From contig JAHHGX010000008.1 of assembly GCA_019359675.1 (NCBI GenBank), positions 1 through 64,000 on the forward strand: DNA of 64,000 nt, written 5' to 3'. Both the position numbers and the translations under genes were made by a program. The DNA is from Calothrix sp. FI2-JRJ7. Its GTDB lineage: Bacteria > Cyanobacteriota > Cyanobacteriia > Cyanobacteriales > Nostocaceae. Positions 9,991 through 63,642 of the stretch are shown here, in pieces (the stretch's first letter is position 1; the number at the start of each line of letters is the position of its first letter). The notes under the pieces were generated by a model that was not told the DNA's origin, did not search any database, and saw only the letters and a list, made by a program, of their open reading frames with translations.

Positions 9991-10050
9991 AGGGGTCTCG
10001 TCCCCTAAAAATAAAAAATGCCCCAGAGTTTTTTTCTCTAGGGCTTAACC
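9991..10050 (+). terminator. Terminator hairpins behind lgt
   Basis: AGGGG/CCCCT (9991-10006) is followed by GCCCCAGAG...CTCTAGGGC (10020-10044), whose loop is a T-run. Suited to ending lgt transcription and isolating cobM. Confidence 0.6.
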
Positions 10051-10155
10051 AGGGTGCATCTACCAATCACTTCTACTATATATAGGGTCATCATCCGGAA
10101 AGGTACTGAGAATTTCTCAATTTTTTTTTTCTAAAACTTCTATTTTTACAAAAAC

Positions 10156-58914: not shown

Positions 58915-60786
58915 ATGAGTGATACTATATTATCCGTTCGCAACCTACGTGTTGAGTTTCCAGGCGATGGTAAAACCGTCAAAGCTGTTGATGATATATC
59001 GTTTGACCTGCGTCGTGGCGAAACTCTCGGCATTGTAGGAGAATCAGGAAGCGGCAAATCTGTTACTTCGTTTGCTGTTATGGGTTTGTTACAGTCTCCG
59101 GGACGGGTAACTAAGGGTGAAATTTTGTTTTCTGCCCAGCCAAATACCCCACCTGTTAATTTGGTGGAACTACCTGCGAAGCAAATGCAGCTTTACCGGG
59201 GTGGTGATATTGCTATGATTTTCCAAGAACCGATGAGTTCGCTTAACCCTGTATTTACTATTGGTTATCAGCTTATTGAAGCTATTTTACGTCACCAAAA
59301 TATTTCTGCTGGTGAAGCTAAACAAAAAGCTATCGCTGGTTTGCAAGAAGTTAAGCTTCTCCCTAGCGATGAGCAGTTACGTGAGCAGTATTTGGAAACA
59401 GCAAAGCAAACTGGTTCATCTGTGGAACCTCAAAAAATTTCTGAGCTAATTAACCTGCACAAAGATTCAATGCTCCAACGTTACCCCCATCAACTTTCGG
59501 GGGGACAACTGCAACGGGTGATGATAGCGATGGCTATTTCTTGTAACCCGTTATTACTAATTGCCGATGAACCTACTACTGCGCTTGATGTTACTGTACA
59601 AGCAACAATTATTGATTTGCTACGCGAGTTACAACAAACGCGCGATATGGCGTTGATTTTTATTACTCACGATTTAGGCTTAATATCAGAAGTTGCTGAT
59701 AATATCGCTGTAATGTATAAAGGTAATGTTGTTGAGCAAGGCGCCTCTAATCAAATTTTTAACAATCCTCAGCATCCATATACTAAGGGATTAGTCGCTT
59801 GTCGTCCAACACTTAATAGTCGTCCTGTGAAGCTTCTTACCGTTTCTGACTATATGAGTGTTGAAGAAACACCAACAGGAGAAATGGTTATTCAAGGTAA
59901 ATCACCCTCGGAACCTATCGAAATTAGTTTTGAAGAAATTAATCGGCGCCTAGATAACCTTGACAAAGAACCAGCACTCGTACAAATCAAAAATCTGAAA
60001 GTCGGTTTTCCCATCAAAGGAGTATTTGGTGCTACTAAACGCTACTTCTGGGCGGTAAATGATGTATCGTTTGATATCAAACACGGCGAAACCTTGGGAC
60101 TTGTGGGTGAGTCGGGATGTGGAAAAAGTACGCTCGCTCGTACATTGTTAAGACTTATTGAACCAACTAGTGGGCAAATTATCTTTGAAAATAAGGATAT
60201 AACTGGACTTAAAGGTGAAGAATTACAAAAATTGCGGCGCCAGATGCAAATTGTATTCCAAAATCCATTTAGTGCCCTCGACCCACGCATGAAAGTTGGG
60301 GAAGCAATAATGGAACCGTTAGTAATTCACAGTATCGGTAAAAGCAAAAAAGAACAGCGCGAACGTGCAGCATACCTTCTCGAACGAGTTGGACTTAGTG
60401 CTGACGCAATGAACCGCTACCCGCACCAATTTTCTGGAGGACAACGGCAACGGGTTTGTATAGCACGCGCTCTAGCTTTAAATCCTAAGTTTATTATTTG
60501 CGATGAGTCAGTGTCCGCACTCGATGTATCTGTACAAGCACAGGTATTAAACTTGCTCAAAGAACTGCAAGAAGAATTTGGCTTGACTTACATATTTATT
60601 TCCCACGATTTAAGCGTAGTCAAATTTATGAGTGATAGAATTATGGTCATGAACCGTGGTCAAATTGTCGAAGAAGGCAGAGCCGAAGAAATTTACCGCG
60701 AACCCAAACAAGAATATACGCAAAAGCTTATTGCATCAATTCCTACAGGTAGTGCTGAAAGAATTAAGCAACGCCAAGCCTCATAA
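58915..60786 (+). CDS. Fused DppD-DppF-like ABC transporter ATP-binding protein
   Basis: 623 residues with two complete ABC ATPase units of the oligopeptide/glutathione (OppD/OppF, GsiA) type. Unit 1: GESGSGKS at 42-49, LSGGQLQRV near 197, DEPTTALD. Unit 2 (from about 350): GESGCGKST near 399, [27 protein letters not shown]. Each unit carries the extra C-terminal oligopeptide-transporter segment ([26 protein letters not shown]). It would energise a peptide or nickel-like importer whose permeases and binding protein are encoded elsewhere; none is adjacent. Uncommonly for this family both ATPases are in one chain, as in GsiA. Confidence 0.95.
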
Positions 60787-60799
60787 AATTTAATACAGT

Positions 60800-60827
60800 A
60801 GTAGGGTGGGCACTGCCCACCCTACTA
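60800..60827. terminator. GTAGGGTGGGCACTGCCCACCCTAC hairpin behind the ABC gene
   Basis: AGTAGGGTGGGCA/TGCCCACCCTACT arms with almost no loop, 15 bp past the stop. Suits a terminator, and also marks DNA just left of the IscB element. Confidence 0.7.
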
Positions 60828-60845
60828 TCTAGTATGTGACAACTC

Positions 60846-61100
60846 CACACACTGACACCCTACGGGGTACAGTGTGGGCTTCCTTGCGAAATTAAGGAGC
60901 GTGTCATTAGTCTGAGTAGCTCGTTATACCAGAGTTACTACGTTTTTTGAGAATACATAGGCACTTCAATGTGTAGGTCTGGTAAACCGTTTTCTAGCAT
61001 TGAACACTGCGGGTAGTAATTAAACATGGTTCTGGAGTTAAGGACAAAGTGTTGCTACTTTAAAACCTCAAAAAACATTGACAAAGAAAACCACCCACAA
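60846..61100 (+). ncRNA. Probable omega RNA (OMEGA guide RNA scaffold) of the IscB system
   Basis: About 250 nt of noncoding DNA directly upstream of iscB, where the family encodes its omega RNA. It starts with a stem CACACTG (60848-60854)/CAGTGTG (60870-60876) capped by ACCC-TACG-GGGT, followed by TCCTT/AAGGA (60881-60898), AGTAGCTC/GAGTTACT (about 60917-60943) and a long-range pair TTCAATG (60965-60971)/CATTGAA (60998-61004). This succession of paired elements, with no ORF, fits a structured scaffold. The guide would be the 15-20 nt just 5' of about 60846, that is DNA flanking the element. Exact ends are unknown. Confidence 0.6.
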
Positions 61101-61137
61101 GGGATGAACTCTTTATTAGTTCAACAACGACAAAACA

Positions 61138-62463
61138 ATGAAAGTATTAGTTATCAACAAACATGGTCAACCATTAATGCCAACATCACCTCGAAGAGCT
61201 AGGTTACTTTTATCTTCAGGAAAAGCCAAAATTGTTGGGCGTGACCCTTTTACTATTCAATTAAATTACGGTTCTAGCGGTTACAAACAAGAAGTAACAC
61301 TTGGACTTGATGCTGGTTATCAACATATAGGATTTAGTGCAATTACTGAATCACATGAATTGATTGGTGGAGAATTAGAATTATTAGACGGAGTGTCAGA
61401 ACGTATTACAGAGCGTTCAAAATATCGTAGACAAAGAAGAAGTAGATTAAGACATCGCGCACCTAGATTTGACAATCGTATACGTAATTTGGGGTGGCTG
61501 GCTCCATCAATTCAACATAAACTTGATGTTCATTTAAAGATTGTTGAACGAATTAAGTCAAGATTACCAGTAACAAAAATTATTGTTGAAACAGCAAACT
61601 TTGATATTCAAAAAATAAAAAATCCAGAAATAGAAGGCAAGCAATATCAAGAAGGCGAGCAACTAGGTTATTGTAACTTAACATGTTATATTAGACATCG
61701 TGATGGTTATAAATGTCAAAATCCCAACTGTAAAGGTAAGTCAGAAGTTTTACAAATTCATCATATTGGATATTGGTTTACGAGACCAGACAGAAGTAAT
61801 AGACCAGGAAATTTAATTACGCTTTGTGAGAAATGTCATGTTCCAGCTAACCATGAAAAAGGTAAATTTTTATTTGGTTGGGAACCAAAGGTTAAATCTT
61901 TTAAAGCAGAAAGTTTTATGTGTACAATTTATAAAAAGCTTTTAGACATCTTAAACGCAGAACAAGCTTATGGTTATGAGACTAAGTTTAATCGAGAACA
62001 GCTTGAACTACCAAAGAGCCACCACAATGATGCTTTTATAATAGCAGGTGGACAAAATCAAGTTAGAATTAAGCCTTTAATATTAGAACAAATACGTAGA
62101 AATAAACGTTCAATGGAGCAATTTTATGATGCAAAATATATTGATACTAGAACAGGTAAAAAAGAATCAGGAAGCATACTATTTTCTGGTAGACGCACAA
62201 GAAATAAAAACTTAAATGCTGAAAATTTAAGAGTTTATCGTGGTCAAAAATTGTCAAAAGGTTCTAGACGTATTAAGAAACAAAGATACCCATATAACCC
62301 AAATGATTATGTTGAGTTTGAGAATAAAAAATATCGAGTTATTGGTATGCAAAATCTTGGCACTGGTGTTAAAATTGCAAATTATCCAGGTGTGGCGAAT
62401 AAAGTAGTAAGTGTTTCCAAGGTTAAACCAATTAAACGTAGGTCAGGAATATGCGGAAAATAA
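61138..62463 (+). CDS. iscB: IscB RNA-guided nuclease (PLMP - RuvC - HNH)
   Basis: 441 residues, apparently intact. PLMP at 12-15; RuvC-I LGLDAG with Asp58; arginine-rich bridge helix about 93-110; RuvC-II VETANFD with Glu151; HNH domain about 180-235 with CxxxxC at 193/198, HH at 208-209 and CEKC at 230-233; RuvC-III SHHNDAF with His295/296 and Asp298; basic C-terminal domain (about 305-441). IscB is the IS605-like transposon nuclease ancestral to Cas9 that uses an omega RNA and nicks each strand with RuvC and HNH. No TnpA gene is adjacent, as usual for this class. No obvious Shine-Dalgarno; the preceding region looks like the omega RNA. Confidence 0.93.
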   Translation: MKVLVINKHGQPLMPTSPRRARLLLSSGKAKIVGRDPFTIQLNYGSSGYKQEVTLGLDAGYQHIGFSAITESHELIGGELELLDGVSERITERSKYRRQRRSRLRHRAPRFDNRIRNLGWLAPSIQHKLDVHLKIVERIKSRLPVTKIIVETANFDIQKIKNPEIEGKQYQEGEQLGYCNLTCYIRHRDGYKCQNPNCKGKSEVLQIHHIGYWFTRPDRSNRPGNLITLCEKCHVPANHEKGKFLFGWEPKVKSFKAESFMCTIYKKLLDILNAEQAYGYETKFNREQLELPKSHHNDAFIIAGGQNQVRIKPLILEQIRRNKRSMEQFYDAKYIDTRTGKKESGSILFSGRRTRNKNLNAENLRVYRGQKLSKGSRRIKKQRYPYNPNDYVEFENKKYRVIGMQNLGTGVKIANYPGVANKVVSVSKVKPIKRRSGICGK

Positions 62464-62781
62464 ATAAGAAGAGGGTTTGTTTTACAGGCGCGAACACTGG
62501 GATCTGCGACTTCGGGATAAGATGGAAATTCAAACCTTGACCCAAACCGAATAAGTTATAATAGATACGGTTTTAAATACCTATATGAAAAAGTTTGAAT
62601 AAATTGATGTCGAAGTTTATTGATAAATATTTTGGTAAAAACTCAAATAAAGAAACTATCTTTTTCTGCAGAGCAGAAATTTGATAGTTCCAAGGTTTCT
62701 TTTTTACCTCGCATTCATCTTAACACCAAGCGGAGTACCGCTATGGTGTAAGGCTTCTGCTGTTCCAGCTAAAATAAAATA
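62464..62781. terminator. 3' flank of iscB: a rho-independent-type terminator and a right-end-like hairpin
   Basis: AACTATC (62654-62660) pairs with GATAGTT (62683-62689), and inside it TTCTGC pairs with GCAGAA; a TTTCTTTTTT run follows (62696-62705). Further on, ACACCAAGCGG/CCGCTATGGTGT (62733-62758) forms a hairpin with one bulge, like the subterminal hairpins of IS200/IS605 right ends, 23 bp before the hydrolase ATG. The left and right element limits cannot be fixed by eye. Confidence 0.6.
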
Positions 62782-63642
62782 ATGTTTGCCAAAATTAGAG
62801 ACACAGAAATATTCTTTGATATTGAAGGGTGTAGTGTAGTAGTTGAAAATAACCGTACCTACACAAAGCCCACTGCTTTTTTAATTCACGGTGGCCCTGG
62901 CGCCGACCATACTGGTTATAAGCCGACTTTTTCAGCTTTAACACGTAGATTGCAATTAGTATATTTTGACCACCGTGGACAAGGACGTTCTAAACGTGGC
63001 GCCAAGGAAACTTACACTCTCGATAATAATGTCGAGGATATGGAAGCTTTGCGTCAATATTTAGGACTTGACAAAATTGTCGTTATCGGCACTTCGTATG
63101 GTGGTATGGTTGGGTTGTCCTATGCTATCTGTTATCCTCAAAATGTCTCGCATCTTATTATTATTGTTAGCACTGCGAGTTATAAATTCTTGGAGCGGGC
63201 AAAGCAAATTTTAGCTGAACGCGGAACTGAAGCACAAAATATTATTGCCCAGCGACTTTGGGATGGTAATTTTGAGAATGAAGAACAATTGCGCGATTAC
63301 TTTAAAATTCTGGCGCCGATGTATTCACTCAAACATGACCCAAATACATCTGTAAAAGTTTGGGATAATAAAATTCTTTCTATTGATGCGATTAATGAAG
63401 CATTTGGTGGATTTCTACGAACTTACGATGTGCGTGACCAATTATACAAGATTACCGCACCTACATTGGTAATCGGTGGGCGCCATGATTGGATATGCGC
63501 TCCTGAATTTTCAGAAGAAATTGCTAAAGGTATTAAAAACGCTGACTTAAGAATTTTTGAGAATAGTAGTCATTTAATCCGTGCAGATGAACCAGAAGCG
63601 CTCTTTGACGCAATAAATGGATTCTTAGTTTACAAGAATTAA
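62782..63642 (+). CDS. Alpha/beta hydrolase of the proline iminopeptidase type
   Basis: 286 residues. HGGPGADHTG (oxyanion loop), VYFDHRGQGRS and GTSYGGMVGL with the nucleophile Ser (about residue 110), catalytic Asp and His in the GGRHDWICAPEF and NSSHLIRADEPE stretches. HGGPG plus DQRG-like DHRGQGRS is typical of prolyl aminopeptidases and related lactonases; the substrate is not determined. It starts right after the IscB element. The stop overlaps by three bases the end of the DUF2283 remnant on the other strand. Confidence 0.9.
   Translation: MFAKIRDTEIFFDIEGCSVVVENNRTYTKPTAFLIHGGPGADHTGYKPTFSALTRRLQLVYFDHRGQGRSKRGAKETYTLDNNVEDMEALRQYLGLDKIVVIGTSYGGMVGLSYAICYPQNVSHLIIIVSTASYKFLERAKQILAERGTEAQNIIAQRLWDGNFENEEQLRDYFKILAPMYSLKHDPNTSVKVWDNKILSIDAINEAFGGFLRTYDVRDQLYKITAPTLVIGGRHDWICAPEFSEEIAKGIKNADLRIFENSSHLIRADEPEALFDAINGFLVYKN

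What the first reader, a model, noticed from the sequence alone, without database searches (positions are those of the whole stretch)
60800..62770. Complete IscB OMEGA locus with a folded guide-RNA region in a heterocystous cyanobacterium
Seen: a 441-residue IscB with PLMP, intact RuvC (Asp58, Glu151, His/Asp 295-298) and HNH residues, and a 250-nt upstream region made of successive stems (60848-60876 stem with internal ACCC/GGGT; 60965-61004 long-range stem). Known: IscB uses omega RNA encoded just upstream, with the guide from the flanking DNA. Inference: the element is active or recently active, and its guide lies at about 60825-60846. The palindrome GGCGCC that marks the host genome is absent from 60242 to 62898, which supports foreign origin.
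Basis: partly seen in the sequence, partly recalled or inferred. Interest (0 to 1): 0.8.

Follow-up and report, generated by a model that had tools for sequence, protein, structure and literature searches.

The report
Intact IscB element in a cyanobacterium
This is a real, complete copy of a well-known kind of mobile DNA that carries a small RNA-guided DNA-cutting enzyme (IscB, from the family that gave rise to Cas9); its exact ends, guide and probable target motif could be read from related strains that lack it, but the thing itself is ordinary and common in this family of cyanobacteria.

Summary
61138-62463 encodes a 441-aa IscB (NCBIfam guided_IscB, 319 bits, cut-off 175) whose RuvC and HNH residues align with OgeuIscB. 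Rfam HEARO (the omega-RNA family) matches 60836-61096 (86.8 bits, cut-off 83), and the fold covaries strongly over 17 homologues. The guide is therefore the flank ending at 60835 (about 60816/60820-60835), not 60825-60846. Empty sites of three independent insertions and 12 right junctions predict a target-adjacent motif CTAA(A), matching published NTAAA/NWRRNA motifs. The gene is under purifying selection (dN/dS 0.08-0.13). No intact IS200/IS605-type TnpA was found in the assembly, so 'active' is supported for the nuclease gene, not for present transposition. A second, internally deleted copy in the genome keeps its omega-RNA; the window copy's guide lies inside a REP-like hairpin. HEARO matches occur in 39 of 60 sampled genomes of the family: a new member of a known kind, modest interest. 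The GGCGCC argument is weak (second largest of 106 gaps).

The parts
60836..62768 (+). whole IscB element, 1933 bp, starts GTGAC, ends CCAG, no target-site duplication
   Evidence: uninterrupted site in G005: 60601-60835 joined to 62769-63000; 12 copies share the same terminal motifs with unrelated left flanks
60820..60835 (+). predicted guide, 16 nt (CCCTACTATCTAGTAT); 60816-60835 if 20 nt
   Evidence: flank abutting the mapped left end; matches the empty allele of G005 exactly, followed by CTAA; guide lengths 16 and 20 nt from PMC13180657 and PMC9581776
60836..61096 (+). omega-RNA scaffold (HEARO RNA); may extend toward the start codon at 61138
   Evidence: RF02033, 86.8 bits, full-length match; covariation over 17 sequences
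   Evidence: helix 1: 7 of 12 pairs with changes on both sides
   Evidence: helix 5: 6 of 12 pairs with changes on both sides
61138..62463 (+). iscB, 441 aa; PLMP, split RuvC (D58, E151, H295, D298), HNH (H208-H209)
   Evidence: NF040563 319 bits > 175; PF14239, PF01844; alignment to OgeuIscB; dN/dS 0.08-0.13
62562..62597 (+). possible remnant of a small ORF tail (VLNTYMKKFE, stop) between iscB and the right end
   Evidence: also in the contig-78 copy with more of the frame; elements with the same end carry a small ribbon-helix-helix-like ORF there; the link is tentative
62724..62748 (+). right-end hairpin, followed by GGCTTCTGCTGTTCCAG
   Evidence: conserved in copies and shared with ends of TnpB elements L031, L032, L035
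62769..62774 (+). predicted target-adjacent motif CTAAAA, host sequence on the right flank
   Evidence: present in the uninterrupted site of G005; CTAA in 11 and CTGA in 1 of 12 right junctions
60793..60835 (+). REP-like palindrome in the host flank whose 3' arm is the guide
   Evidence: predicted hairpin; palindrome dispersed in this and other genomes

Best explanation
An IscB OMEGA element with IS200/IS605-like anatomy, inserted between an ABC-transporter gene (58915-60786) and an alpha/beta-hydrolase gene (62782-63642) in a Calothrix/Dulcicalothrix-type cyanobacterium. A transcript that reads from the host flank into the element gives an RNA of 16-20 nt of flank (the guide) followed by the HEARO scaffold. 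IscB binds this RNA and cuts DNA that matches the flank and is followed by CTAA(A), that is, the same locus without the element. The cut copy is repaired from a sister copy that carries the element, so the element is kept after excision or spreads across the chromosome copies of the cell. Shown here: protein, RNA fold, ends, empty sites, motif, selection. Inferred from the family: transcription, binding, cutting, repair.
For: IscB equivalog score and catalytic residues; HEARO match and covariation; exact empty site in G005 and two further insertions with precise empty sites; 12 consistent junctions; perfect target plus CTAA in G005 and no other target in the own genome; dN/dS 0.08-0.13; motif agrees with NTAAA and NWRRNA of tested IscBs; TnpB shown to act as a gene drive for its insertion sequence (PMC11870625).
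Against: No expression or cleavage data. No intact TnpA found. The guide would be hidden in a hairpin if the transcript starts upstream of about 60800. HEARO score is only just above the cut-off.
Confidence: 0.85

Rival explanations
1. A recently stranded relic: the nuclease is intact because the insertion is young, but it is not mobile now (no TnpA) and its guide is hidden by the REP hairpin, so it does nothing at present.
For: No intact IS200/IS605-type TnpA; guide unpaired probability 0.16-0.17 for long transcripts; the sister copy on contig 78 has already lost most of the protein.
Against: No lesion in protein or RNA; dN/dS about 0.1, though much of that history precedes this insertion; a 5' end at 60816-60820 frees the guide.
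Confidence: 0.25
2. A domesticated IscB kept for a host function, such as regulation or defence, rather than for retention of the element.
For: Purifying selection; no transposase beside it.
Against: The locus is empty in the six other same-genus genomes examined, the ends are intact, and the guide matches the insertion site rather than a foreign target.
Confidence: 0.03
3. An unrelated HNH homing endonuclease gene with a chance upstream structure.
For: The Pfam HNH hit alone would allow it.
Against: HEARO match, covariation far above both controls, RRXRR and split RuvC, IscB equivalog score.
Confidence: 0.01

Closest known systems
IscB/HEARO OMEGA nucleases (OgeuIscB, OrufIscB, TbaIscB; NF040563; RF02033)
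   Same: domain order, catalytic residues, HEARO RNA upstream, guide from the left flank, motif compatible with NTAAA/NWRRNA
   Different: shorter than OgeuIscB, about 30 residues fewer between bridge helix and RuvC-II in the alignment; divergent scaffold that scores just above the HEARO cut-off; untested clade
IscB elements of Calothrix sp. NIES-4105 and Dulcicalothrix desertica PCC 7102 (L077, L083)
   Same: 88% identical protein, same ends GTGAC...AG before CTAA, same RNA fold
   Different: different insertion sites and so different guides; the window element carries about 155 extra bases between iscB and the right end compared with NIES-4105
IS200/IS605-type TnpB elements of cyanobacteria (L031, L032, L035)
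   Same: share the terminal hairpin of this element's right end
   Different: they carry TnpB, in the opposite orientation relative to that end
IsrB
   Same: PLMP, RuvC, omega-RNA
   Different: IsrB lacks HNH; this protein has it

Membership tests
IscB OMEGA system | PLMP domain, split RuvC with bridge helix and intact D/E/H/D residues | tested here: met
   alignment to OgeuIscB, 16 homologues, NF040563
IscB OMEGA system | HNH domain between RuvC-II and RuvC-III | tested here: met
   PF01844 at residues 193-235; H208-H209 invariant
IscB OMEGA system | structured omega-RNA (HEARO) immediately upstream | tested here: met
   RF02033 above gathering score; covariation
IscB OMEGA system | guide taken from DNA flanking the element's left end | tested here: met
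   left end mapped at 60836 by the empty site; flank differs in every copy. That the flank acts as a guide is inferred
IscB OMEGA system | target-adjacent motif 3' of the target | tested here: inconclusive
   CTAA(A) found at the right junctions and in empty sites; cleavage not tested
IscB OMEGA system | RNA-guided DNA cleavage | not testable with these tools
   needs biochemistry
IS200/IS605 superfamily element | subterminal hairpin ends and insertion without target duplication | tested here: met
   right-end hairpin shared with TnpB elements; no duplication
IS200/IS605 superfamily element | TnpA transposase in the element (autonomous form) | tested here: not met
   none in the element; Y1 hits elsewhere in the genome are broken, REP-type or weak. 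So at most a non-autonomous member
IsrB | lacks HNH | tested here: not met
   HNH present

The most novel reading that the evidence does not exclude
One IscB serves two guides: the deleted copy on contig 78 (62406-63415) has lost HNH, RuvC-III and the C-terminal domain but keeps a full-length omega-RNA (with a compensatory C-G to U-A change in its first hairpin) and its own flank guide, so the window's IscB could guard both insertion sites in trans. On a polyploid chromosome this would be a two-locus drive by an element family that has lost its transposase.
Probability: 0.2. Interest if true: 0.55.

Novelty: new member of a known kind. Interest (0 to 1): 0.32.

Why it matters
It adds an untested IscB clade with precisely mapped ends, a predicted motif CTAA(A), and a natural matched pair: one strain with the element and a sister strain (G005) with the perfect empty target. 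That pair makes the retention or gene-drive model for IscB directly testable on a real chromosomal site. It is not a new system: RefSeq already names such proteins IscB, and HEARO matches are found in 39 of 60 sampled genomes of the same family.

Tried and rejected
GGCGCC depletion as evidence of foreign origin: rejected as weak. AlphaFold model: mean pLDDT 54, pTM 0.34 on a 16-sequence alignment, too poor to use, so no fold search was run. Promoter and terminator scan: no more hits than in shuffles. Search for the right-end hairpin elsewhere in the own genome with a strict pattern: only the window copy fits; the other 10 matches look unrelated and the backwards control gave 6. Search for a partner TnpA in the own genome: none intact of the IS200/IS605 type. 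Two founding IscB papers are not held, so nothing is cited from them.

Full report
What is there. The ORF at 61138-62463 (441 aa) is an IscB: NCBIfam guided_IscB 319 bits against a cut-off of 175, Pfam RRXRR and HNH, PDB relatives TbaIscB and OgeuIscB. In the alignment with OgeuIscB chain 7xht, Asp58, Glu151, His208-His209, His295 and Asp298 fall on D61, E193, H246-H247, H340 and D343. D58, E151, H208, H209 and H295 are invariant, and D298 nearly so, in 16 homologues. No lesion was found. dN/dS against four close homologues is 0.08-0.13, so the gene has been under purifying selection.

The RNA. Rfam RF02033 HEARO, whose associated proteins belong to the IscB family (PMC9755519), matches 60836-61096 over its full length at 86.8 bits (gathering 83). 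On an alignment of 17 upstream regions the consensus fold has 54 pairs, 26 with changes on both sides. 97.5% of cells pair; double-change cells are 102 against 28.6 +/- 4.1 in shuffles, and sliding the partners by one column drops pairing to 42-45%. The structure was derived from the same alignment, so the percentage paired leans towards it; the double changes are the stronger evidence. The window sequence alone folds 3.2 standard deviations better than shuffles.

The ends. In the same-genus genome G005, window 60601-60835 is joined directly to 62769-63000. The element is therefore 60836-62768, starting GTGAC and ending CCAG, without target duplication. The same ABC-transporter/hydrolase junction also lacks the element in the other same-genus genomes examined, G001-G004 and G006. 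Two further insertions have uninterrupted sites in relatives: the own-genome copy on contig 78 (empty in G005 and G006; a contiguous match also in G002) and the Dulcicalothrix desertica copy (uninterrupted homologues in G002, G003 and on own-genome contig 70). In the D. desertica case the joined flanks read through in frame (E V L S P K N K R A G, my translation of the junction). These sites keep CTAA, or once CTGA, on the right. Twelve copies compared all begin GTGA and end AG before CTAA (11) or CTGA (1), with unrelated left flanks.

Guide and motif. The guide should be the flank ending at 60835: CCCTACTATCTAGTAT if 16 nt (the optimum reported for OgeuIscB, PMC13180657), or 60816-60835 if 20 nt (as in the DtIsrB structure, PMC9581776). 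The predicted motif CTAA(A) fits NTAAA of OrufIscB and NWRRNA of the 496-residue IscB. A search of seven same-genus genomes with up to three mismatches finds the 16-nt target plus CTAA perfectly only in G005, with one mismatch in G003 and three in two other G003 sites; in the own genome only the element junction itself is found. So the guide addresses the empty allele and has no other close target in the host.

A quirk of this copy. The element landed at the foot of a dispersed REP-like palindrome (60793-60835), and the guide is its 3' arm. A transcript that includes the other arm would hide the guide in a long hairpin: mean unpaired probability of the guide is 0.16-0.17 for 5' ends at or before 60790, against 0.61-0.69 for 5' ends at 60816-60820. 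Whether the guide works thus depends on where the RNA starts or is trimmed. This is a prediction, not a measurement.

Mobility. The element has no transposase. The five Y1 transposase hits in the assembly are two frames with stops, two REP-type proteins (one below that family's cut-off) and one weak unresolved hit. The right-end hairpin is shared with TnpB elements in other cyanobacteria (L031, L032, L035), where TnpB lies in the opposite orientation. I infer that a TnpA acting on such ends moved this element in trans.

The second copy. On contig 78 a relative with 90% identity has lost the sequence corresponding to about 61622-62561. It encodes only residues 1-162 plus a few codons (167 aa) but keeps the whole omega-RNA (HEARO 74.6 bits, below the cut-off), with a compensatory C-G to U-A change in the first hairpin. 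It could lend its guide to the window's IscB in trans; this is untested.

Mechanism. The most likely role, by analogy with TnpB acting as a gene drive for insertion sequences on plasmids (PMC11870625), is retention: cutting of element-free sister copies followed by repair from a copy with the element. Heterocystous cyanobacteria are polyploid (own knowledge), which would make such a drive useful on the chromosome. Shown: anatomy, ends, motif, selection. Inferred: expression, cleavage, repair.

Novelty. HEARO matches occur in 39 of 60 sampled genomes of the family, 29 above the cut-off, some with more than 30 copies, and RefSeq already labels such proteins IscB. The nearest named relatives are in Calothrix sp. 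NIES-4105 and Dulcicalothrix desertica PCC 7102, each 88% identical. It is a new member of a known kind.

Noticed in passing
G000 contig 78, 62406-63415 (L007, L008): Internally deleted copy of the same element: full omega-RNA, IscB cut to 167 aa, altered right terminus; possible guide donor in trans.
   Followed up: partly
L003:940-2049 (G000 contig 36): A 369-aa IsrB-like protein (PLMP and RuvC motifs, no evident HNH) in the same genome; two further distant IscB-like fragments in L004 (one TGA) and L005.
   Followed up: no
L032:1304-1597 and L035:1298-1559: TnpB elements with a small ribbon-helix-helix-like ORF beside the end hairpin that the IscB element also uses; the window has a possible tail of such an ORF at 62562-62597, hinting that the IscB element's right end came from a TnpB element.
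   Followed up: partly
window 60793-60835: REP-like palindrome GTAGGGTGGGCACTGCCCACCCTAC, dispersed in this and many other cyanobacterial genomes; the genome also encodes REP-associated tyrosine transposases (L102).
   Followed up: partly
window 10012-10065 (-): NsiR1 nitrogen-stress-induced RNA match (Rfam RF02399, 52 bits, cut-off 39).
   Followed up: no
window, whole: GGCGCC occurs 105 times in 64 kb where about 3 are expected from base composition, while the usual cyanobacterial palindrome GCGATCGC occurs 0 times.
   Followed up: no
L085, L089-L091: IscBs 53-61% identical to this one in Desulfobacter, a Euryarchaeota MAG and a Methanosarcinaceae MAG, with HEARO upstream in L085 and L089, pointing to wide horizontal spread of this clade.
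   Followed up: no
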